A stretch of 64,000 bases of DNA from Kovacikia minuta CCNUW1 (lineage in GTDB: Bacteria > Cyanobacteriota > Cyanobacteriia > Leptolyngbyales > Leptolyngbyaceae). The stretch lies in NCBI RefSeq assembly GCF_020091585.1, contig NZ_CP083582.1:7078536-7142535 (forward strand), in the 5' to 3' direction. The notes beneath the pieces are model-generated. The model searched no databases. It was not told the origin of the DNA and saw nothing but the letters and a program-made list of their open reading frames with translations. How positions within the stretch are numbered: the first letter of the stretch is position 1; each line of letters starts with the position of its first letter. Shown here piece after piece: positions 5,919 to 46,645 of this stretch. Position numbers and translations under genes: made by a program.

Positions 5919-6737
5919 TTGCCTAAGTTGAACTGCCGCAATCTAAAATTCAGAATTCGAGACCCTGGGTTATCCCCTTTTCTATTGATTGCCAGTCTTC
6001 TGACCCTGACTGCCTGTGGGAAAACGTTGGATAGCGAGAACATTGCCCAAAGGATTCAGCAAGACGTGATCCGTCAGGGAGGGATTTCTCTTAAAACAGT
6101 TACCTGTCCTGGGAAAATTGAACCGGAATCAGGAGAACGTTTTGAGTGTATTGGGGAAATCGACACGGGCTATACCTTTACAATTCCGGTGAAACAGCAG
6201 GACGATCAGGGACGAGTTACCTGGGATGTTCCGAATGCAAAGGGGTTGCTGAATGTCGCAAAGTTTGAAACAACGCTTCAGGAAGCTGTACAGGCTGAGA
6301 TCGGCTCCCGCCCTATCATTCGTTGTGGGGATGGCTTTAAACCGATCAAACCGGGGCAGATTTTTGAATGCAAGCTTGAGGTGAAGGAAAAGGTGGGAGA
6401 TCCCAAGGGTTCTAAAGTTGCCGGAGATGCCAGAAAACCCGCCCCATCAAACACACCCCAACGAAGAACGGGCAAGAACCTGAAACCCGAAACGATCGTA
6501 GTCTCCGTGGGTGCCGATGGAAATGTCAGTTGGCAACGGGTGCTGCCAGGTGCGGTGAGCGAACTTTCGCCTAAGCCTGCCGAAAAATCCACCAGGTCTG
6601 CAAACCGGGAAGTTCCATCGACCCAATCTTCGGTTAAACCTGCTTCAAAACCGGCTGCCAACCCTGAACCTCCGGCTCAGAAAAGCGCGGAGGATTTTTT
6701 GAACCAACCGGGTGCTTCCGATCAATTTGAGGATTAG
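5919..6737 (+). CDS. Lipoprotein with DUF4333-like repeats, unusual TTG start
   Basis: A lipoprotein-type signal (LLIASLLTLTAC, lipobox LTAC) is followed by two similar domains, each with a paired-cysteine pattern (VTCPGKIEPESGERFECIGEI and IIRCGDGFKPIKPGQIFECKLEV share the order C...G...FEC). That is the DUF4333 pattern. The C-terminal 80 residues are Pro/Ser/Lys-rich and probably disordered. No ATG opens the frame ahead of the signal peptide; TTG at 5919 or 5928 must be used, or the start has been altered. The residues before the signal peptide (NLKFRIRD) look like translated intergenic repeat. Its 3' end overlaps the convergent gene by 4 bp. Confidence 0.75.
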   Translation: MPKLNCRNLKFRIRDPGLSPFLLIASLLTLTACGKTLDSENIAQRIQQDVIRQGGISLKTVTCPGKIEPESGERFECIGEIDTGYTFTIPVKQQDDQGRVTWDVPNAKGLLNVAKFETTLQEAVQAEIGSRPIIRCGDGFKPIKPGQIFECKLEVKEKVGDPKGSKVAGDARKPAPSNTPQRRTGKNLKPETIVVSVGADGNVSWQRVLPGAVSELSPKPAEKSTRSANREVPSTQSSVKPASKPAANPEPPAQKSAEDFLNQPGASDQFED

Positions 6738-8908
6738 AGGTTCTGGAGTTCCGCCGGGGAGTATGCTGGAATTTTTTCTAATCCTGCATTCATCTCAGGG
6801 TAAATATATTCCTGAGATAACCGTATCCGATAATTTACTTTTTGGAACAGCACATCATATTCTTCCGGTGTTAGTGGTGGAATAATTGACAGTTCTGGAC
6901 CTTCGTTAACCAGATCAATTCCTTCATTTAGAAGCGCAGAAAATACCAGGGTATAAAGGGCTTCTTCTAAGGTTAATTCACCCTCTAATGGAAAGTTTCC
7001 CTGGCTAATCAGAAGTGTGGTGTGTTTACGATCGGGATGCTGAGAAACCGCTTTAAAGACTTCTACCATTGCGCTATGAAGTGCTTCCTCGGACTCGCTC
7101 CAGTCTGGACAAAGCAGCAAATTGTTACCTCTAAGATTAAACTTTTCTAATAGGGAATCGATCGGTGAAGCGCTAGGCTTAACTGCTTTGAGAATTACTT
7201 TGACTTGAATTACATCATCAATAATTTCTGCCTCATGCTCCAGGTTAACAATGCTGAAGGCACCCTTAAATCCGTAGCTTTGGCATAGTTCCAGGTAGGC
7301 GGGAAATTCAACGCTGTAGTATTTGAATGAATTAATATTCCAGAAGCTAATGTGGGTTGGGTCTTGAAAAGCCCCTCGACCATCGGTAGAAGGGACACGA
7401 ATATCAACTAATGCGTTGGGTTTGCAGATCCGCCAAATTTCATTCATGGTGTGAATGCGATCGTGGAGATGCTCAACGGTATCGTAGGCTCTGACAATAT
7501 CAGCACTATTGTCAGGAAATGGAAACCGTTGATTCAGATCGGCAACAACATCCACGCCAGGGGCATCGGTCACATCGACTCCAATAAATCCTTCTTGCTT
7601 ATGGGTGCCGCAACCCAGATCGATATACATGGATTCCCTAAAAGTTAATGGGGTTTGAATTTTAGAAATTACAAAAGCGACCAGTTGATCATAACTACAG
7701 CGCTGAATTATATCGTGATGAAGTTGTTTGGCAACCTCCAGACGTTCATTTTCATAGGTCAGATAATATGCAATCTTTTCGTTCAACTCTTCGATCGATC
7801 GATAGGAAATTTCCTGGTCAACTGAGGTAATCTTTTTTAGATCTGCCTTCCAATCCGTCAAAATAAAGCCACCCACTGCCCCCGTATCAACAACTCGATT
7901 AACAACTGCGTGGTCAAATTGAATGCCAGTTATGTTGAGATTAATTTTGGAACTGGCATAGAGGTTGCAAGTTGCCGCGTAGTTACTCGTTGGTGGGTGG
8001 TAAATAATATTTTTTTGATCGATGATTTGCCTGGGGAGAAGCCCTTCTAAATAACTGGGATCTCCCCCAATCACATTAACTGAAAAGATTGGATCAATCC
8101 GTTTAATTAAATCACCACGAAACCCCAAGGAAAGGCGGCTTGCGATGAATTGATAGTTTGAACGTTTCCTGATTGATTGCAGATTGGTATCAGTCTCCGG
8201 TTGGGACTGGGCATAGGCAGTTGCAGATGGCTCAATTTCTCGATCGAGCGAAACCAACCGTGACCAATAATCAGCCGCAATTCGATGAAAGAAAGGCAGA
8301 TGACTATAGGAGTTGGCAACCGCATCGATTCCGGGCAAAACATGGCCCACAAACGAGAGATCAAATGTGTAAGTCTCTGGTAGAGGGATTTTTTCGAATT
8401 CAGAGCCATGAAAGATGGAGTGGACGAGATCGAAGCCCATACTCCTTAAATCAATCACGTTATTGGATTCAATGCAAAAATGAATACTCCGATGTTTGAC
8501 CCGTTGCCAACCTTCCAGTAGATGCTTTCCCGTCTCAATTTCATGGTTGGCAAAACTACTCCAAATATTATCGTGGTGAATAAAAACCAAAAATGATTGA
8601 AATAACTCAAAAACAAACTGGTTAGAAGGCTCCAGGAAAAACTGCACCAATGAGGAATTGTCAAAAATGAAGAGGGTGTCAATTTCTTCAGATTGGGCAA
8701 GTTCTAACAACGTCTCCAACGCGTGATTGAAATTTGCATATTCACTGGGATTGAAATAGATGACTGAATTGCCGCGCCGCTCTAGCGCGCTGCGATAACC
8801 AGCTGTTATTCTTTGGTAAATGGGAGTAGGAGAACTCTCAATCAGAAATTTACCTGGAAACCCGGCCTGAGCAGTTGTCATAGAGTTTTTTCTAGTAGCT
8901 TGGCTCAT
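6734..8908 (-). CDS. Fusion protein: CgeB-like glycosyltransferase, SAM methyltransferase and C-terminal glycosyltransferase-associated domain
   Basis: 724 residues in three parts. Residues 15-405 look like a CgeB/DUF3880-type glycosyltransferase (FVGHVLPGIDAV; a C-terminal Rossmann half with SKINLNITG and GAVGGFILTDW). Residues about 425-590 are a class I methyltransferase with the SAM-binding MYIDLGCGTHKQEGFIGVDV motif, VADLNQRFPFPDNSAD and the AYDTVEHLHD block. Residues 600-724 resemble a segment often attached to SPINDLY-type or tetratricopeptide glycosyltransferases (LLLCPDWSESEEALHSAM). It probably modifies surface glycans or glycoproteins. The ATG at 8908 is used; ATG nine codons later is an alternative. 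Confidence 0.75.
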   Translation of the reverse strand: MSQATRKNSMTTAQAGFPGKFLIESSPTPIYQRITAGYRSALERRGNSVIYFNPSEYANFNHALETLLELAQSEEIDTLFIFDNSSLVQFFLEPSNQFVFELFQSFLVFIHHDNIWSSFANHEIETGKHLLEGWQRVKHRSIHFCIESNNVIDLRSMGFDLVHSIFHGSEFEKIPLPETYTFDLSFVGHVLPGIDAVANSYSHLPFFHRIAADYWSRLVSLDREIEPSATAYAQSQPETDTNLQSIRKRSNYQFIASRLSLGFRGDLIKRIDPIFSVNVIGGDPSYLEGLLPRQIIDQKNIIYHPPTSNYAATCNLYASSKINLNITGIQFDHAVVNRVVDTGAVGGFILTDWKADLKKITSVDQEISYRSIEELNEKIAYYLTYENERLEVAKQLHHDIIQRCSYDQLVAFVISKIQTPLTFRESMYIDLGCGTHKQEGFIGVDVTDAPGVDVVADLNQRFPFPDNSADIVRAYDTVEHLHDRIHTMNEIWRICKPNALVDIRVPSTDGRGAFQDPTHISFWNINSFKYYSVEFPAYLELCQSYGFKGAFSIVNLEHEAEIIDDVIQVKVILKAVKPSASPIDSLLEKFNLRGNNLLLCPDWSESEEALHSAMVEVFKAVSQHPDRKHTTLLISQGNFPLEGELTLEEALYTLVFSALLNEGIDLVNEGPELSIIPPLTPEEYDVLFQKVNYRIRLSQEYIYPEMNAGLEKIPAYSPAELQNL

Positions 8909-38039: not shown

Positions 38040-38279
38040 ATGGCAACGGCAAAAATTAGAAAGACACCTGGCATCTGCAACGGAGCCGCTTGCATCGGAC
38101 GGACGCAAATTCCCGTATGGCAATTGGTCGCCTTGCGCGCTCAAGGGTGTTCCGACGCCAATTTGCTCAGCGATTACCCGCAGTTAACCCGAGACGACTT
38201 GAAAGCAGTCTACACCTACTATGCTCAGAACACTGAAGAAATTGACGCGGCGATCGCAGCTGAGGCTTCAGAGAGCTAA
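38040..38279 (+). CDS. DUF433-family protein (possible antitoxin)
   Basis: 79 residues. KTPGICNGAACIGRTQIPVWQLVALRAQG (key motif CIGRTQIPVWQLV) and LLSDYPQLTRDDLKAVYTYYA form the DUF433 helix-turn-helix-like domain, often found as antitoxin to a PIN/DUF5615 toxin. No such toxin follows; the next sequence downstream is a truncated Uma2 fragment on the other strand. Confidence 0.85.
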   Translation: MATAKIRKTPGICNGAACIGRTQIPVWQLVALRAQGCSDANLLSDYPQLTRDDLKAVYTYYAQNTEEIDAAIAAEASES

Positions 38280-38394
38280 CACCTATGTGCTGCGCCAGCC
38301 TCAAGCCTGCACGGGCTTGAACTTTGTGACGACATATAGGGTTAGAGGTTGGGTGGGTGACTGAACCATGAGCGTTGGTCTGCTTTAAGCGAGA

Positions 38395-38496
38395 CCGAAC
38401 AAGCGAACCATCGATGAATTCGTAATGGTTATCCGTACCATCGTCATAAACGAGGTATTCCTCGAAGGTGAGACGTTGAACGGCGATGTTAACCAT
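38395..38496 (-). pseudogene. N-terminal fragment of a Uma2-family gene
   Basis: From the ATG at 38496: VQRLTFEEYLVYDDGTDNHYE then FIDGSLV, the standard opening of Uma2 proteins. Similarity is then lost; the frame stays open to 38167 but runs antisense through the DUF433 gene without any family feature. It is a truncated remnant. Confidence 0.75.
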
Positions 38497-38574: not shown

Positions 38575-39429
38575 CTATTTGAGCACCATCTTCCCAATGA
38601 AGGTGCCTACAGCTTCAAATATGGTGTACCAAAATATGCCAACGCCTACATAGGGTCCATATTGCAAAAGGGGAGATCCTGATTGGCTAAGACGTTTTAG
38701 GGGAAAGTATTCTATCAACAACGGAACCAAGAAGGTGAGCGCATACGCTGTTGTTACCGCATTAGAAAGGTGAAGATTCTGTACTTTAGGGAATGGATTG
38801 TAGTACATGCCCAATACAATAGCAGTAACTTTTAATAGTTGATCCCAAAGGAATGAAGAGTAAAACATCTGGGGTAATTCAAACCGGAAATTTCTTTGTA
38901 AGGAATCTCCCTCAAAAGTTCGGCTCATCCCCAATAGAACGATCCACGAAATTGTTCCCATCGTTCCATCGATTTTGAGTCCGCATTTCTGTTGGAACAC
39001 TTTAACTGCTGCTTCAGTATCCTTCCCGAAATAGCCATTTTCATCTTTTATAGAACATTTGAATGGTCCTTCCCTCAGGGTTTTCTGTAAATCCGCAATC
39101 GCATCTACTATTTCCTGAGACGCACCTTTATTACTGTTACGTGAAAGTTTGGGATAGCACAAACAAATCCACGTTACTACACCAACCACACCATCGATAA
39201 AGAGGCCATTATCTTTCTGAAATTGTCGAACGGCGCTCTCAGTTTCTAGATCAAATCTTCCACTTAAATTTAATGAGTATCCCTTTGCCTTTAAGCGGCT
39301 TTGTAATTCATTGATACTTTTCTGAAATGATTGCGGAGTAACCCCTGGGTAAAGTACAGGTCGTAGATTAACCAGAGAGATCGGCAAACTTGGTTCACAC
39401 CTTCTTTGTCTGAATGGAAATTTATTCAT
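38575..39429 (-). CDS. Membrane protein with two peptidoglycan-binding-like domains
   Basis: 284 residues. Two PG_binding_1-type repeats: about residues 35-95 (SINELQSRLKAKGYSLNLSG, ESAVRQFQKDNGLFIDGVVG) and 105-170 (AIADLQKTL, EAAVKVFQQKCGLKIDGTMG). The C-terminal 90 residues contain about three hydrophobic helices. No enzymatic domain is seen. It could anchor to the cell wall or use the repeat as a generic binding module. It overlaps the preceding small gene by 8 bp, so the two form an operon. Confidence 0.8.
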   Translation of the reverse strand: MNKFPFRQRRCEPSLPISLVNLRPVLYPGVTPQSFQKSINELQSRLKAKGYSLNLSGRFDLETESAVRQFQKDNGLFIDGVVGVVTWICLCYPKLSRNSNKGASQEIVDAIADLQKTLREGPFKCSIKDENGYFGKDTEAAVKVFQQKCGLKIDGTMGTISWIVLLGMSRTFEGDSLQRNFRFELPQMFYSSFLWDQLLKVTAIVLGMYYNPFPKVQNLHLSNAVTTAYALTFLVPLLIEYFPLKRLSQSGSPLLQYGPYVGVGIFWYTIFEAVGTFIGKMVLK

Positions 39430-39721
39430 GAGGCATCTCCATTTGTATCAGGAGACAGTTGCCCTGACTAGCCATAATCATTACAGGCTGCCCATTCACC
39501 ACTTTTCCAAAGGGACAGTTTTCATAAGGTTTCCAGCGCCAAAGGGTACCGGCAAACCTGACATAAGGTGCAGAGCCTTCTTGTAATACCATCACTCCAG
39601 GAACTGGCTTTGTTAACATTTTGATTGGAGATTCAGAGAAAAAAGGATCGATCGAGGATAATTTCATAGACGATCTCCAGTTTTTTGACAACAGAAGCGG
39701 AAGATTGCGGAGGTTTATCAT
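39422..39721 (-). CDS. Small hypothetical protein upstream of the PG-binding membrane protein
   Basis: 99 residues, no recognised family. The C-terminal part (FAGTLWRWKPYENCPFGKVV, GQPVMIMASQGNCLLIQMEM) looks like a small beta domain. ATG at 39721 or 39667 may be the start. The 8-bp overlap with the next gene suggests translational coupling and shared function. Confidence 0.55.
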   Translation of the reverse strand: MINLRNLPLLLSKNWRSSMKLSSIDPFFSESPIKMLTKPVPGVMVLQEGSAPYVRFAGTLWRWKPYENCPFGKVVNGQPVMIMASQGNCLLIQMEMPHE

Positions 39722-40406
39722 TTCTCTTTCCTACGAATACAAACTGTGCTATTTGGGGAAACGGAATTAAAAAGTTTCTATTGCTCCACCTCTTATTTAT
39801 TTGCATCTTTTGTAATCTGCTTTTTAGAGAATTCTGATAAGAGGTCGCCAGGACTTACCAAATGAAATAGATAAAAATTGCAATCACATTCACAACCAGA
39901 AATCCAGGTTGAAAAGGAGATTCAAGAACTATTAACGGCCACTCTCGTTTTTGTCTCTATTGCCTCAGGAGAAAAAAGCTAATTCCAATTCCCCACCTGT
40001 TGGAGAAGCTGAAAATGAGATTCTTTGCCACATACCGCATTTTTCCCACCCATCCTTCTATATGAAGGAGAAAAATGCTACTAAACGCTTTGAGCAGCAC
40101 CACGCGGCTCAAGGCTTGCAGATGGATAATAAAATCCCTCACATAAAGTAGGCTGATAAACTTTTATCAGGTTTTCCAGAATAAATCAAGCAATCTGCCA
40201 GACTAAAGTGAGGGTTTTTAACCTGTCTTGCTTAAAGCAGTGCAATTATACTATTTGAAAAGCCCGCAAGTGAGTCATTTGGTTGCCGATTAGCCTGGTT
40301 CCTCGGTTGTTAAACCCTTAAATATGGGCATTTGCTTTGTAGATTCTTCATGCATATGCATTGAATATGGTGTGATACTAGGGAGCGTAGGTTTAGATGA
40401 ATATAA
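39722..40406. other. 685-bp intergenic region before the HTH/TIR-like/GAF gene
   Basis: No convincing gene. It includes a short palindrome CTGATAAA/TTTATCAG near 40152-40169 and a long-range pair of CCCTCAC (about 40135) and GTGAGGG (about 40209), which may form a structured leader. The gap holds promoters of both divergent transcripts. Confidence 0.5.
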
Positions 40407-43211
40407 ATGAGTCAGATTTCTCTGGAAGCTTTGAAGGGTCTAGTTGAAGAAGAAGGCGTGTCTGATGCTGAGTTGCCTATTTTAAGCCTGGTTGTAGAAG
40501 GAAAACCACCCGCTGAGATGAAAGCAATTTTAGGACTGCGTTCGGAAAATGCAGTTCAGAAGAAATTGGCTCCTATATACGCCAAATTCCGAATTGCAGG
40601 TGCTGGCCCCGGCAAGTTGGCTAAACTTCAAAAAATATTGCTAGATCGATTACAGTCTAGCCAAGGTAAAAGGAAGGTATTTATTGCCTGGGTGGGTCAG
40701 GTAGGAAAGCTCCAGGCGGATGGGATGAGAGACCTTTTCAAGCATCCCCAAATCGAGACGTTTATCTTAGATCAAGATATAAGCTTAAATTCGCTTTGGA
40801 TACAGGAGATTGAAGCGCTTCTAGAAAGCTTTGATTATGGGATCATTTGTTCTTCAAAGGAATCGAGTGAAAATCCGCCCGTTAATTTCGCCATCGGGTT
40901 TCTAGCTGGCAGGTTTCAAAAGCTGTGGATTGCCTATCCTCAGAGAGAAGAATTTTCCAAGTTCCTTTTTCGCTTTCCCGTCATAGACACAGGTAGTGAA
41001 GAATCTTTGGCAGACTTGCTACATCAGATAATTGGTGGAGAGGTTCAAGATTCAAAAGAGTGGGTACTTTTCAAAACCTCTAATCCAGTATGGAAAGAAA
41101 GACTACATCAAATAAATCAACAGCGATCAGATCAGATTAGACCTCAAGAGAGTGAATTCATAATAGATTTGGCTAAGAGAACACTTAGTCAGAATCCTCA
41201 CTTCCTCAGAAATACCACTTTCCAGAACCTGGTCATTAAATTTTTATCTGATGCAAGTACTTATGTTCAAAATCTAGGCGTAAATAGTTCTGTTTTTTCT
41301 ATCCCACTGGAATTATATCCACGCTATCTTACTGTCCTTCAGAAAGAGTTTAGAATTTGTGTTAAAGCTGTCGCGATCGTAGATAGCGTAGAACGTTTTT
41401 GGTCTAATGATGAAGGTGATGAAATTGGAGAAACGGCAAATAAAGAGAGCGAAAGATTATTTGTATTTAGAAGTGAGAAAGATTTTAATGCTAGTTTAAA
41501 TTTTCTCTTAATGCATGCTTCACACTACAAAGTGTTTGTGACAACCAGAAAAAACTATATTCCTTACGCGGAGGAGTATTCTCTTAGGGATAGACCAACA
41601 AAATGGAAAGAAGACTTTAGTCTGCCTACTAAAGAGTTTGCAATTATTGAAGACCCAGCAACCAAGCATCAATTAATTGCTTGGTACGACGAGGACAACA
41701 TTAAAGATAGAAGAAGCAGAAGGCTAGTTCATTTTTCTCCTGTAGCAGGCGAAATTTTTCAATACAAAGAGGTTCTTTCCAACTTTCTTGAACGAGCGAA
41801 ACAAAGTCAAGGAGTTTTCCAAATTAATGTAAAAGACAAATTGGGCTACCAAACTGTGCCTGAAGAAATTGAAATAATCCGGGAAGAACTGTTTCGGAAA
41901 ATTTCTCAAGAACCATCCAAGACACCAGGAGAGATCCTGCAAGACTTGCAACACCTTAGAAATGAATTGATGGTTTTGGAGAGTAAAGAAGAAGTAATTC
42001 AAAAAGCCCTTGAAGTAATTCTAAATAGATTAAGAGCACAAACTGCCTCAATCTTCTTATTTTCAAAAGATGGACGGCTACATCGTGTTGGCATAAAAGG
42101 CATAGACGTAAACCGAAAGCCGATAGAAAATACTGATTTCTTTGTTGAAAGTTATGCGCCAGGCGAAAGCTTTACAGGTAAAGCTATCCTTCCTGGGAAA
42201 GATGGTTTTGGGAAACCCTGGTGGACTAATAATTTGAGCGGTGAAGCTTCACTATTTGAAACTAGCAAGAGAGAGTATAAAAAAAGGCTCGGCACAATTA
42301 ACTCCGCAATTGCTGTTCCATTAAATGGGCAGAACAAGACATATGGGGTTTTAGAAGTAATTAATAAAATTGATCCAATCACTAAAAGAGCGCTTCCAAG
42401 CCACGGGTTCTTGCAGGATGAGGTTTATTGGCTGTCCGCTGTAAGTTCATCTGTCGCTTACACCCTTTCTAGTCTTCGGAGAAAGCGACAAAATAAATTA
42501 TTTGCTGATTTGAGCAAGTATTTATTAAGTAATAGCTTTGATCAAGAATCAGTATATAAAGAAGTTACCTGGCGTTTGATTTCCGAAGATACTTCTTTTA
42601 AGGTATGTATATTACGAATCAAAGATGAGACAGGTGCTTTGGAAGTGGTTGCCAAATCTCCTGGAGATGGTGATTCAATCACTTGGGAGAATAGGCGAGA
42701 TGATAAGAGGCATCCAGGAGATGGGCTGGTAGGACAAATACTTCAATCTGTAGACGAGAATAACCCAAGCTATGTAATCGTTCCAAAGATAGATGAGCAA
42801 ATAGATGAATTTAGAAATAAGGATTGGGTTTTGGCTAATCAATTCAAATCCTTCGGTTGCTTTCCATTAATGTATAAAAGCGAAGTCGTAGGATCAATTT
42901 CACTTTATACTGCCTACGAATATGATTTCCATCGTGGTTGTAAAGACTTTTTAAATAGAGTCGCATCTTTAGTTGCTGCTTTTGTGGGCAGAGTAAAGGA
43001 AGAAAAGCTTAAGGATAGGGTTAGAAAACTTCTTGATCAGCAGCTTGCTGCACTTCCCCCTGATCTTTCAAAGCTTAATCAAAATGAATTGCTCGAAAAG
43101 CTTTCCGTTTGTCAAGAGCAACAGGGCATGGTTCGACGGCAACTGGACCCTGCTGATCTTCAACCCAAATCGAATACTTATGCAACAAGCCAGAACGGAT
43201 ATCTAGACTAG
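40407..43211 (+). CDS. Large sensor protein: N-terminal HTH, TIR-like domain, unknown middle region and two GAF domains
   Basis: 934 residues, soluble. Residues 15-85 resemble a LuxR-like HTH module of cyanobacterial signalling proteins (ILSLVVEGKPPAEMKAILGL, GPGKLAKLQKILL). Residues 88-205 look TIR-like: KVFIAWVG, then FILDQDISLNSLWIQEIEAL, YGIICSSKESSENPPVNFAI and FRFPVIDTG. Where TIR NADases have the catalytic Glu, the sequence reads NFAIG, so catalysis is doubtful. The middle (205-490) is unassigned. GAF 1 (about 515-680) has LRAQTASIFLFSKDGRLHRV and GVLEVINK; GAF 2 (about 695-880) has GDGLVGQIL and GSISLYTAYEYDF. Inferred role: ligand-controlled signalling or stress/defence. Domain calls are by eye; the TIR call is the weakest. 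Confidence 0.6.
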   Translation: MSQISLEALKGLVEEEGVSDAELPILSLVVEGKPPAEMKAILGLRSENAVQKKLAPIYAKFRIAGAGPGKLAKLQKILLDRLQSSQGKRKVFIAWVGQVGKLQADGMRDLFKHPQIETFILDQDISLNSLWIQEIEALLESFDYGIICSSKESSENPPVNFAIGFLAGRFQKLWIAYPQREEFSKFLFRFPVIDTGSEESLADLLHQIIGGEVQDSKEWVLFKTSNPVWKERLHQINQQRSDQIRPQESEFIIDLAKRTLSQNPHFLRNTTFQNLVIKFLSDASTYVQNLGVNSSVFSIPLELYPRYLTVLQKEFRICVKAVAIVDSVERFWSNDEGDEIGETANKESERLFVFRSEKDFNASLNFLLMHASHYKVFVTTRKNYIPYAEEYSLRDRPTKWKEDFSLPTKEFAIIEDPATKHQLIAWYDEDNIKDRRSRRLVHFSPVAGEIFQYKEVLSNFLERAKQSQGVFQINVKDKLGYQTVPEEIEIIREELFRKISQEPSKTPGEILQDLQHLRNELMVLESKEEVIQKALEVILNRLRAQTASIFLFSKDGRLHRVGIKGIDVNRKPIENTDFFVESYAPGESFTGKAILPGKDGFGKPWWTNNLSGEASLFETSKREYKKRLGTINSAIAVPLNGQNKTYGVLEVINKIDPITKRALPSHGFLQDEVYWLSAVSSSVAYTLSSLRRKRQNKLFADLSKYLLSNSFDQESVYKEVTWRLISEDTSFKVCILRIKDETGALEVVAKSPGDGDSITWENRRDDKRHPGDGLVGQILQSVDENNPSYVIVPKIDEQIDEFRNKDWVLANQFKSFGCFPLMYKSEVVGSISLYTAYEYDFHRGCKDFLNRVASLVAAFVGRVKEEKLKDRVRKLLDQQLAALPPDLSKLNQNELLEKLSVCQEQQGMVRRQLDPADLQPKSNTYATSQNGYLD

Positions 43212-44379: not shown

Positions 44380-45243
44380 CTACCCTAGTTCTACTCGATC
44401 ACTACCCTCAATTGGCAAGATGTTGTAGCTACCAAAAACTTTCAAAATGGCGGTTTCGTTGGTTAACGTTTCTAAAACCGCTTGCACGGAAGGATCGCCA
44501 GCATTTCCTTCTAAGTCCACGAAAAATAGATAATCGCCCAGCGATCGCTTAGTGGGACGAGATTCAATTCGGCTTAAATTAATGTTCTGACTAGCGAATA
44601 GTTGTAGGGATTTTACCAGGGCACCGGGGGCATCGTGAACAATAAAGGCCAGGGATGTGTGGTTTCCGCCCGGAGACGGGTGCAGGCTAAGGGCCCAAAA
44701 GCGGGTGCAGTTGTCGGGATAGTCATTAATTGGGCAGGCAAGAATCGGTAGGTTGTAAAGCTGGGCAGCCCGTGGGGAAGAAATTGCCCCCACCGCAGGG
44801 TCAGCTTGAAGATACGGCAGAGCGTCGGTCGTAGAGTTGGTTGGGATTAACTCACACTGCGGCAAGAATTCTTCTAACCAGCGCTGGCACTGTGCCAATG
44901 CCTGGGGATGGGAATAAACGGTGTGGATTGTATCAAGAGCGGTTGCTTGAGACAGTAGCGCATGTTCGATCGGCAGAACTAACTCTTGCTGAATTTTGAG
45001 ACTATCCAACTGCCATAGCGTATCCAGCGTGACGGTGACACTACCCTCAATTGAGTTTTCGACTGGAACAACTGCCAGATCTGCCTTCCCCTGCGCTACT
45101 GCTTGTAAGGTACGGGCAATACTGGGATAGGGACACAGTAAAGGGGATTGCCCTGTTTTTTGCTTTAACCAGGTTGCGTACTGGAGGGTGGCTGTTTCTG
45201 CATTCGTCCCTGATGGACCCAAGTGGGCGATCGATAAAGTCAT
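44380..45243 (-). CDS. pheA: PheA, prephenate dehydratase
   Basis: 287 residues from the ATG at 45243; in-frame codons to 45327 run into the insertion element and are not native. IAHLGPSGTNAETATLQYA, ADLAVVPVENSIEGSVTVTLD, the S/T-rich catalytic block IPTNSTTDALP and NCTRFWAL are typical. A C-terminal ACT domain (LAFIVHDAPGALVKSLQLFA, INLSRIESRPTKRSLGDYLF) gives phenylalanine feedback control. It converts prephenate to phenylpyruvate. An IS256-type element begins 24 bp upstream and separates it from its former promoter. Confidence 0.94.
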   Translation of the reverse strand: MTLSIAHLGPSGTNAETATLQYATWLKQKTGQSPLLCPYPSIARTLQAVAQGKADLAVVPVENSIEGSVTVTLDTLWQLDSLKIQQELVLPIEHALLSQATALDTIHTVYSHPQALAQCQRWLEEFLPQCELIPTNSTTDALPYLQADPAVGAISSPRAAQLYNLPILACPINDYPDNCTRFWALSLHPSPGGNHTSLAFIVHDAPGALVKSLQLFASQNINLSRIESRPTKRSLGDYLFFVDLEGNAGDPSVQAVLETLTNETAILKVFGSYNILPIEGSDRVELG

Positions 45244-45267
45244 GGAAGGATGGGAAGAGGAATTTTG

Positions 45268-46645
45268 GTTAGTGTCACGAATTTTTCGCCACGGTTTTAC
45301 GGTCATGTTTGGCATGATCACGCTCAATCACGAGGAAAAAGACAGTGAGGCAACTCGTTTCATGCGGGAATGCCCCAATTTCATCTGACTTGGTGCGAAA
45401 TTCTCGAAATAGCCGCTCCAAATGATTAGTGGTGCGAATATGCCGATGCAGGTTTGGTGCAAATTGATAGAAAGTCAGGGTCAACTCTAGATCGCGTTGA
45501 AAGACTTGGATGGCTTTGGGTTCTTGTGTTTCCCATTTGGTGATGAATTGCTCTAACCGTTGCCTTGCCTGCTCCAAAGTCTCTGCATTGTAGATTTGAT
45601 AAGCCTCAGAGGCAATTTCAAATCGACGCTGCCGTTTGGCATCTTCCCGCTTCAGGGGTTGTTCCTGCTCATCGGTTTTCGGCAAATCCTCATAACTCAA
45701 ATAGCGCTCAATCCCTCGGATTTTGTGCGTGATACAGCGTTGCTGTTGGGCCTGGGGCAAGGTCTTTTTCAACGCCTTGGGCAATCCCAAACTGCCATCA
45801 CTGACCACTAATTTCACCGCATCGGCTTGCAGTCCTCGGGCGATTAAATGCTCAAACAAGGCCTCCCACTCTGCTTCTCCTTCGTCGGAGGCAATCTCAT
45901 AATGCAGGATTTCATAAGACCCATCCTCCCAGACGGCTAGAACTGCCAAAATTACCCGTTCTTCGGCCTGCCGACTTTGTCGCAGATGTCCTGCCCGGTC
46001 TAGCTTAAACGCTTCTCGGGTATATTGAATCTCTACCCACACCCCATCGACGATTAATATCGCAGGGGTTTTGCCAATCGGGGCTAAGCGACGAGTGTCT
46101 AAGTGTTGCTGAATCTGGAGGGTGACTTGGTTCACAGCACTGCGGGAAAGCACATGTCCTATGAGAAAATATAGCGCCTCTTGCAAATCTCTCAACGACA
46201 GTCCCATCACATACAAACAACACAACCAGTTGAGCAGGTTGCCTAAGCCCCGTTGGTAACGTTGGAGAATCTGCCACTCTCGTTCTGGGTTGCGTTCTCG
46301 TAATTTCGGAACTCGCAAATCCTTCACCTGGCCATACTGGGTATCGAGTCTCCGTTGAAAATACCCGGAACGTCGAGGTCGATCGTCTCCCATTTTGGCT
46401 AGTTCTGCCTTGAGTTCCTCTTTCAGTGCGCTCTCCAAGGTGATTTTGACGGCACTGATGACGGCCTCTCTGAGGGCCTGTTCTAACGCCTCATCCAGTT
46501 CAGGTTGAAAACTGACGGCTTTGACTCGATGGATTTGTTGTTCTCGTTGGGCTATGGTCATGGGAAGCTCCCCTCTCGATGGAGTTCCTCTACTGTCACT
46601 GAATCTTTTTTCTCTGTCTAATGGCGAAAAATTCGTGACACTAAC
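45268..46645 (-). mobile_element. Complete IS256-family insertion sequence (1378 bp)
   Basis: Perfect 24-bp terminal inverted repeats lie at 45268-45291 and 46622-46645 (outer bases GTTAGTGTCACGAAT). They are flanked by a 7-bp direct repeat AATTTTG (45261-45267 and 46646-46652), the target duplication. One intact transposase gene fills the element, and its stop codon lies in the left repeat. Intact ends and duplication indicate a recent insertion. Confidence 0.95.
45275..46561 (-). CDS. IS256 (Mutator-type) transposase
   Basis: 428 residues, full length. DDE residues are visible in ILIVDGVWVEI (first Asp), LVVSDGSLGLPKALKK (second Asp) and TNHLERLFREFR (Glu), with the family's CITHKIRGIERYL and RSGYFQRRLDTQYGQ blocks. 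It encodes a cut-and-paste or copy-paste transposase acting on the ends at 45268 and 46645. The gene is intact and in the same direction as pheA. Confidence 0.97.
   Translation of the reverse strand: MTIAQREQQIHRVKAVSFQPELDEALEQALREAVISAVKITLESALKEELKAELAKMGDDRPRRSGYFQRRLDTQYGQVKDLRVPKLRERNPEREWQILQRYQRGLGNLLNWLCCLYVMGLSLRDLQEALYFLIGHVLSRSAVNQVTLQIQQHLDTRRLAPIGKTPAILIVDGVWVEIQYTREAFKLDRAGHLRQSRQAEERVILAVLAVWEDGSYEILHYEIASDEGEAEWEALFEHLIARGLQADAVKLVVSDGSLGLPKALKKTLPQAQQQRCITHKIRGIERYLSYEDLPKTDEQEQPLKREDAKRQRRFEIASEAYQIYNAETLEQARQRLEQFITKWETQEPKAIQVFQRDLELTLTFYQFAPNLHRHIRTTNHLERLFREFRTKSDEIGAFPHETSCLTVFFLVIERDHAKHDRKTVAKNS

What the first reader, a model, noticed from the sequence alone, without database searches (positions are those of the whole stretch)
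40407..43211. Unusual HTH / TIR-like / GAF-GAF protein
A TIR-like fold between an HTH-like N-terminus and two GAF domains is not a combination I know as described. The expected catalytic Glu appears to be replaced (NFAIG), and the 280-residue middle is unassigned. It could be a ligand-gated signalling or anti-phage protein, or a sensor using a non-catalytic TIR.
Basis: inference. Interest (0 to 1): 0.65.

Follow-up and report, generated by a model that had tools for sequence, protein, structure and literature searches.

The report
Self-regulating dead-TIR sensor protein
A cyanobacterial protein joins a DNA-binding head, an immune-type TIR domain that has lost its catalytic residue and two sensor domains, and matching DNA boxes in front of its own gene suggest that it works as a gene switch rather than as an immune enzyme.

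Summary
The 934-aa ORF is real and intact. Its parts check out: an N-terminal HTH also found on other cyanobacterial signalling proteins, a TIR domain (res. 87-213), a conserved middle domain of no known family (253-467), and two GAF domains. The catalytic-Glu position is Ala162; 0 of 9 HTH-TIR-GAF proteins aligned keep Glu, while 2 of 2 TIR-methyltransferase fusions without HTH do. The TIR is under purifying selection, so it probably serves without NADase activity.

The new evidence is regulatory DNA. Relatives carry a repeated box, TAAAAGCCTCA(C/T)TT, upstream of the gene. A matrix trained only on other loci finds its three best hits in the whole 64-kb window 126-276 bp before this gene. The box is enriched in 15 of 16 HTH-bearing loci, in 0 of 2 HTH-less ones and upstream of 0 of 24 other genes with this HTH. 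Most likely it is an autoregulated one-component transcription regulator with a non-catalytic TIR, often head-to-head with a small membrane or envelope gene. Neighbours show no established defence system, only weak or candidate hits. DNA binding, ligand and role are inferred, not shown. It is a new variant built of known domains plus one unknown.

The parts
40407..43211 (+). HTH - non-catalytic TIR - unknown middle domain - GAF - GAF protein, 934 aa
   Evidence: ORF intact; full-length relatives 45-51 % identical in 8 other genomes
40407..40664 (+). HTH domain, res. 1-86 (recognition helix about res. 47-60, inferred)
   Evidence: AF2 helices, block pLDDT 64-86; same domain on other cyanobacterial proteins
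40665..41045 (+). TIR domain, res. 87-213
40890..40892 (+). codon of Ala162 at the catalytic-Glu position
   Evidence: A/L/T in 9 of 9 GAF types aligned; E in 2 of 2 MTase fusions and 1 of 5 HTH+separate-MTase rows
41163..41807 (+). conserved middle domain, res. 253-467, no known family
   Evidence: strong matches (E below 1e-90) in 4 of 386 phylum genomes, the window's own included
41982..42458 (+). GAF domain 1, res. 526-684
   Evidence: Pfam GAF_2/GAF
42513..42986 (+). GAF domain 2, about res. 703-860
   Evidence: second Pfam stretch, position not printed; weak phmmer match to 3e0y at 703-860, E 0.063; Pfam places it at 729-871 in the relative L018
40131..40158 (.). putative distal operator AAAATCCCTCACAT|AAAGTAGGCTGATA, an imperfect palindrome; the right arm is weak
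   Evidence: left half-site third best PWM hit of the window (12.3 bits); best palindrome score of the window, 9.0 bits, rank 1 of 191,919 placements, so the right arm alone scores below zero
40206..40219 (-). putative operator half-site AAAAACCCTCACTT
   Evidence: best PWM hit of the 64-kb window, 18.2 bits
40268..40281 (-). putative operator half-site CAAATGACTCACTT
   Evidence: second best PWM hit of the window, 12.3 bits
38575..39429 (-). divergent gene: two PG_binding_1 domains plus hydrophobic C-terminal part, 284 aa; possible partner or target
   Evidence: Pfam 5.2e-25; homologues head-to-head with family genes in G472 and G435
39422..39721 (-). 99-aa ORF overlapping the start of the PG_binding gene, between it and the boxes
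   Evidence: sequence; no convincing match in the 25 loci searched there (best E 0.057)

Best explanation
It is an autoregulated one-component transcription regulator. The N-terminal HTH binds an array of boxes (a palindrome, imperfect here, and further half-sites) in front of its own gene and so controls itself and, in most HTH-TIR-GAF relatives, a head-to-head small membrane or envelope gene. The two GAF domains are the ligand-sensing input. The TIR domain has lost its catalytic Glu and, with the unknown middle domain, acts as an assembly or signal-transmission module between GAF and HTH. Shown computationally: the domains, the loss of Glu, the conserved upstream boxes and their association with the HTH. 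Inferred: that this HTH binds the boxes, the sign of regulation (probably repression, as in the 9 other HTH-TIR-GAF loci one box begins 25-33 bp before the start codon), the GAF ligand and the role of the TIR.
For: Boxes found by aligning divergent intergenic regions of relatives. PWM of 28 sites, none from the window: the 3 top positions of the 64-kb window all fall 126-276 bp upstream of this gene; top-3 sum reached by 0 of 5000 dinucleotide shuffles; all top-3 hits there for 0 of 1000 column-permuted PWMs. Leave-group-out: 15 of 16 HTH-bearing loci significant, 0 of 2 HTH-less loci; 0 of 24 upstreams of other genes with this HTH at p < 0.05. Exact 13-mers: 14 of 19 in ten HTH-TIR-GAF genomes lie in this one intergenic region. 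Clear 28-bp palindrome (18-33 bits) in 7 of 10 HTH-TIR-GAF loci. Glu absent in 9 of 9 GAF types, yet TIR dN/dS 0.09-0.31 in the four pairs that could be computed. Cluster-42 divergent gene: strong matches in 4 of 217 genomes, all four beside the family gene.
Against: One HTH-bearing relative (L016) has no box (p 0.06 and 0.67). The palindrome is weak in the window and in two other loci (5.8-9.0 bits). The window lacks the start-proximal copy; its array lies further upstream. Column-permuted PWMs had their top hit in this stretch in 11 of 1000 trials, about twice what its length predicts. No sigma-70-like promoter was found in 39400-40500. The divergent gene in the window is 977 bp away with another ORF between. 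Pfam gives the window's HTH no hit. The middle domain could not be modelled. Nothing here tests binding.
Confidence: 0.6

Rival explanations
1. The HTH is a protein-protein adaptor, as N-terminal domains of STAND conflict proteins often are (recalled), and the boxes are bound by another regulator.
For: The same HTH heads other proteins whose upstreams lack the box (0 of 24).
Against: The box is enriched in 15 of 16 loci with the HTH and in neither locus without it, across two clades with different C-termini.
Confidence: 0.13
2. The TIR is a signalling scaffold or regulator of other TIR proteins in the cell, assembling with them; transcription is secondary.
For: TIR kept without Glu; the same genome holds 24 TIR_2 matches in 18 open frames by my count of the table, their catalytic state not determined.
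Against: None of the 24 lies within the window, and the operator evidence points to DNA.
Confidence: 0.1
3. An anti-phage NADase effector gated by GAF domains.
For: TIR resemblance to PADLOC TIR-TM; a PDC-S03 candidate ORF nearby.
Against: Catalytic Glu and the Trp before it replaced; 26 of 30 neighbours without a PADLOC match.
Confidence: 0.05
4. An ordinary environmental GAF-HTH regulator in which the TIR and middle domains are mere connectors.
For: GAF-GAF pairs occur alone or with a histidine-kinase-like C-terminus elsewhere (L020, by eye); the TIR has the highest dN of the five regions in 2 of 5 pairs, the window's pair among them.
Against: TIR and middle domain are under purifying selection and also occur together without GAF.
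Confidence: 0.2

Closest known systems
PADLOC model TIR-TM (PDLC03016) and bacterial TIR NADases such as AbTIR
   Same: TIR domain by profile and fold
   Different: catalytic Glu and Trp replaced; only profile positions 2-85 of 293 match here, though the fusion relative L017 matches 2-280; HTH and GAF added
Cyanobacterial HTH-headed STAND (NB-ARC) proteins
   Same: same N-terminal HTH; the PG_binding gene stands head-to-head with NB-ARC proteins of another type in many loci
   Different: no NTPase; TIR, middle domain and GAFs instead; own box
TIR-middle-methyltransferase proteins of Cylindrospermum and G029
   Same: TIR and middle domain
   Different: keep Glu, no HTH, no box; an 8xMP membrane gene directly downstream in Cylindrospermum (Pfam 2.4e-38) and a homologue as second gene upstream in G029
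CARF-HTH regulators such as Csa3 (recalled)
   Same: immune-type ligand-sensing domain coupled to an HTH
   Different: TIR and GAF instead of CARF; no CRISPR link seen

Membership tests
TIR domain | profile or sequence similarity to TIR | tested here: met
   marginal with PDB TIR chains; no TIR_2 hit for the window protein itself
TIR domain | TIR fold | tested here: met
   res. 87-213, Z 10.2 to TIR-STING 9lmq; B12-binding folds score up to 9.6, so fold alone does not decide; Foldseek alone had no E <= 0.001
TIR NADase | catalytic Glu | tested here: not met
   Ala162; 0 of 9 GAF-type rows have Glu
TIR NADase | NAD+ hydrolysis | not testable with these tools
   needs assay
Known anti-phage systems (Thoeris, CBASS, Pycsar) | partner defence genes next door | tested here: not met
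   PADLOC on 30 neighbours from ten loci: no component of these named; PDC-S03 in 2, weak partial Csa3/CARF and PDC-M51A matches in 2; not every neighbour was scanned
PADLOC TIR-TM | whole-profile match | tested here: not met
   only res. 90-171 match, profile 2-85 of 293
GAF domain | Pfam GAF above cut-off | tested here: met
cyclic-nucleotide GAF (NKFDE, recalled) | NK...F-x3-DE motif | tested here: inconclusive
   read by eye: INK...FLQDE in GAF1, one residue short
LuxR/GerE HTH | Pfam GerE above cut-off | tested here: not met
   no hit for the window; 0.0039 in L016, 0.11 in L018, both below cut-off
One-component autoregulator | conserved operator-like boxes upstream of its own gene | tested here: met
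   palindrome weak here
One-component autoregulator | HTH binds the boxes and changes transcription | not testable with these tools
   needs EMSA and promoter fusions
HTH-STAND protein | NB-ARC/NACHT NTPase | tested here: not met

The most novel reading that the evidence does not exclude
A transcription factor that reads TIR-made second messengers: the dead TIR keeps the nucleotide pocket, binds NAD-derived signals made by active TIR proteins of the same cell, and with the GAF pair switches the HTH on its own divergent promoter, tying TIR immunity to gene expression.
Probability: 0.1. Interest if true: 0.85.

Novelty: new variant of a known kind. Interest (0 to 1): 0.6.

Why it matters
It gives a testable case of a bacterial TIR domain kept under selection after loss of its enzyme residue and moved into transcription control, with the likely DNA sites named to the base. 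It also shows that a pool of swappable modules (HTH, TIR, middle domain, GAF pair, methyltransferase, small divergent partner) is shared between STAND-like proteins and this regulator family, and it leaves one conserved domain of unknown fold to solve.

Tried and rejected
Middle domain as PLD-like: suspected by eye from the order of strands and helices; hhalign with two other TIR proteins gave 0.1-0.2 % probability, PDB and Pfam searches nothing usable, and both AlphaFold2 models were poor there. Not claimed.

Foldseek on the 510-residue model had no match at E <= 0.001; only the second look by VIA-align was informative, and only for the TIR. HTH and middle domain are barely tested by it.

Relatives in plasmids, phages and viral contigs: short TIR matches only (6 and 2 records) and none.

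Regulon elsewhere: in the window's own genome the pattern MAAAWNMCTCACWT, shaped on the three window sites, has 9 matches, 3 of them here and 6 single ones that I did not follow.

A regular-expression search for catalytic Glu in other TIR proteins of the genome was too crude to use. Literature searches with loose terms were uninformative.

Rows dropped before counts: G557 (L080) left out of the Glu table as its contig ends inside the gene; G435 (L088) left out as its HTH-TIR gene is split; the hits G477, G518, G520, G525 and G527 left out of the family alignment; one locus under two ids (L050/L078, L052/L075, L053/L076, L016/L051, L018/L091) counted once.

Full report
What is there. The ORF at 40407-43211 (+) encodes 934 residues without interruption. 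Pfam sees GAF domains only; PADLOC adds a TIR match, TIR-TM, E 1.4e-6 at residues 90-171. A 16-row alignment of relatives and AlphaFold2 give the anatomy: HTH 1-86, TIR 87-213, a helical linker, a conserved middle domain about 253-467, GAF 526-684 and GAF about 703-860. For the TIR, the structural second look is led by TIR-STING chains (Z 10.2, rmsd 3.4, 121 aligned), but B12-binding domains of similar topology follow at up to 9.6, so sequence decides: hhalign of the TIR alignment with a TIR protein of a related genome gives 98.8 %, and HMMER aligns it, marginally, with three TIR chains of the PDB, E 0.0063-0.024.

The catalytic residue. In the HMMER alignments the Glu of the AbTIR motif DWTNYE falls in the column that holds Ala162 here, and its Trp in that of Pro158 (that this Glu is the catalytic one is recalled). 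Across the 16 rows the column is A, L or T in 9 of 9 HTH-TIR-GAF proteins, A in 4 of 5 HTH-TIR proteins with a separate methyltransferase gene, and E in the fifth (L016) and in 2 of 2 TIR-methyltransferase fusions that lack the HTH. A tree of the TIR-middle region holds the HTH-TIR-GAF proteins together (100/99) and puts the Glu-bearing L016 beside them, on a long branch of unsure place, and the fusions beside the other methyltransferase-linked rows; two separate losses are the simplest reading. Of five pairs counted for dN/dS, four gave a value for the TIR, 0.09-0.31; the window's pair was saturated there (a simple count method, and two pairs share one sequence). In 2 of the 5 pairs, the window's included, the TIR has the highest dN of the five regions. 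The domain is kept, though not the most conserved, and not as this enzyme.

Relatives. In 39 genomes near the window, itself included, 10 have some match, five of them to the HTH alone. In 386 genomes of the phylum 36 match, 27 of them only within residues 1-193, mostly the HTH. Nine such HTH proteins were read by eye and look NB-ARC-like; one was scanned and has NACHT and NB-ARC. With the TIR-middle alignment 19 of 217 genomes of the family of G201 match. Full-length HTH-TIR-GAF proteins 45-51 % identical to the window's are in 8 other genomes (G201, G504, G549, G444, G448, G467, G479, G480), and a ninth, G557, is cut by its contig end. The middle domain is rare: strong matches in 4 of 386 phylum genomes, marginal ones in 2. 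GAF pairs 31-41 % identical occur without HTH and TIR.

Sister forms. In G018 (Myxacorys), G472, G478, G479 and G575 the HTH-TIR-middle part is a separate 483-524 aa protein followed by a methyltransferase gene; G435 has the same order with the first gene split. In G029 and Cylindrospermum TIR, middle and methyltransferase are fused and the HTH is missing. In Cylindrospermum the next gene encodes an 8xMP membrane protein (2.4e-38); a homologue is the second gene upstream in G029.

The head-to-head gene. Nine of the ten HTH-TIR-GAF loci have, on the opposite strand just upstream, a short protein of one of two families: cluster 42 in G467, G479, G480 and G557, cluster 4 in G201, G504, G549, G444 and G448; 7 of these 9 proteins have a segment above a hydropathy threshold. 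Among 217 genomes cluster 42 has strong matches in those four only, plus one partial match. The window has instead a two-PG_binding protein with a hydrophobic C-terminus at 38575-39429, whose homologues stand head-to-head with the family gene in G472 and G435. That gene is not specific: 48 of 217 genomes hold it. Of 20 other places fetched (18 of the 51 listed, 2 of the 5), 17 have on the other strand a protein of the NB-ARC-TPR type (Pfam run on 2 of the 17, the rest judged by N-terminus), one has an HTH-WD40 protein with small ORFs between, and two have neither. Cluster 4 too occurs elsewhere: 20 of 217 genomes. Of the 15 without the family pairing 14 were fetched; in 12 it lies opposite an 842-875 aa protein with an HTH-like N-terminus judged by eye, mostly with a small gene between; of these, two were scanned, one with NACHT and one without any Pfam domain. 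So the small divergent genes seem to be general partners of such proteins.

The boxes. Aligning the divergent regions showed TAAAAGCCTCA(C/T)TT in up to four places per region. In the 9 other HTH-TIR-GAF loci one copy begins 25-33 bp before the start codon. A matrix from 28 sites of other loci, applied to the window, puts its best three of all positions at 40206-40219 (-), 40268-40281 (-) and 40131-40144 (+), 18.2, 12.3 and 12.3 bits, the next being 10.4 (inside the gene itself) and 9.7; 1 of 5000 dinucleotide shuffles of the 350 bp upstream reached the top score and none the top-three sum. With column-permuted matrices the top hit fell in this stretch in 11 of 1000, about twice what its length predicts, and all top three in 0 of 1000. 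Simple consensus searches of the window with two mismatches are not by themselves striking: 4 matches, 2.55 expected, for AAAAGCCTCACTT, and 8 matches, 2.85 expected, for the window's own variant. Two half-sites head to head form a clear 28-bp palindrome (18-33 bits) in 7 of 10 HTH-TIR-GAF loci; in the window, G480 and G557 it is weak (9.0, 7.5, 5.8). Even so the best placement in the window, rank 1 of 191,919, is at 40131-40158, and the best of the locus lies upstream of the gene at rank 1 in 8 and rank 2 in 1 of the 9 others.

Tests of the link between box and HTH. Leaving out each locus and its nearest kin, 15 of 16 HTH-bearing loci pass (top hit p 0.0033-0.0133; top three p 0.0033, the floor of 300 Markov resamples), L016 fails (0.06, 0.67), and both HTH-less fusions fail (top hit 0.21 and 0.93). 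The kin groups were coarse: some related loci stayed in the training set of others. The motif was picked by looking at several of these loci, so the tests on those are partly circular; the window's sites are in no training set, and the methyltransferase-linked loci were not used to find the motif. Upstream of 24 other genes with this HTH (a 25th had too little sequence; several of the 24 are near kin) the lowest p is 0.065. Exact AAAAGCCTCAYTT occurs 26 times in 14 genomes: 14 of 19 in the ten HTH-TIR-GAF genomes lie in this intergenic region, 0 of 7 in the four others, methyltransferase types, do; the backward control pattern occurs 8 times. The window's genome has none of the exact form; its own looser form occurs 9 times, 3 here. 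The window's array has the same order and similar spacing (distal to proximal site 137 bp; about 90-175 in 8 of the other 9, G480 differing) but lies about 110 bp further from the start codon, without the start-proximal copy.

Neighbours and defence. Thirty neighbours from the ten loci were scanned against PADLOC. Twenty-six have no match at 0.001. Two match the candidate family PDC-S03: a G549 neighbour (3.3e-11) and the 109-aa window ORF 38167-38496 (2.5e-12). A 1141-aa G557 neighbour has partial Csa3/CARF-type matches (best 2.5e-6) and a G448 neighbour a weak PDC-M51A one (0.00023). No established system was seen beside the gene.

Interpretation. The boxes go with the HTH, they are local, and the TIR is catalytically dead by sequence. 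The simplest account is a one-component regulator that binds its own divergent promoter, senses through GAF and perhaps TIR, and controls itself and a small membrane or envelope partner. In the window the partner is distant and a 99-aa ORF lies between, so its control is the weakest step. No sigma-70-like promoter was found there. Whether this serves phage defence, stress or something else is open.

Print. Searches of the held library for the combination found nothing: (search listings). I saw passages, not whole texts, of PMC7159879 and PMC8195603; the passages seen name TIR, GAF or HTH among modules of prokaryotic conflict systems, not this architecture. Subscription papers and preprints are mostly not held, so absence is not shown.

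Noticed in passing
L151 (G515:C1:1094000-1104000), about 6875-6982: A 36-residue remnant of the cluster-4 partner gene (92 % identical) lies beside the same flanking gene as in G201 and G504, without the family gene between them: probably a deleted or empty site.
   Followed up: partly
L053 10007-10570 and L017 9285-9914: 8xMP octameric membrane protein gene (L053; homologue in L017) near TIR-methyltransferase fusions that keep the catalytic Glu; these could be a two-part defence system.
   Followed up: partly
G000:C1:175003-176658, C1:1490912-1492573, C3:35776-37404: Three open frames of 1052-1113 aa in the window's genome with three TIR_2 matches each.
   Followed up: no
window 45275-46561: Transposase-like ORF (by eye, mutator/IS256 type) overlapping the start of the prephenate-dehydratase-like ORF 44380-45327.
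   Followed up: no
L088 (G435:C27), 6568-8018: The HTH-TIR-middle gene is split by a frameshift or stop.
   Followed up: no
G575:C49:35634-35667: Two exact boxes AAAAGCCTCACTT 21 bp apart, away from the family gene.
   Followed up: no
L090 7159-7980: TIR protein with an effector-associated domain 8 (Pfam EAD8 4.8e-6).
   Followed up: no
window 38167-38496: 109-aa ORF matching PADLOC candidate family PDC-S03 (2.5e-12, profile 16-98 of 207), by eye a truncated Uma2-type protein, beside the PG_binding gene.
   Followed up: partly
L080 1210-4635: 1141-aa protein, the fourth ORF upstream of the G557 family gene, with partial Csa3/CARF-type PADLOC matches.
   Followed up: no
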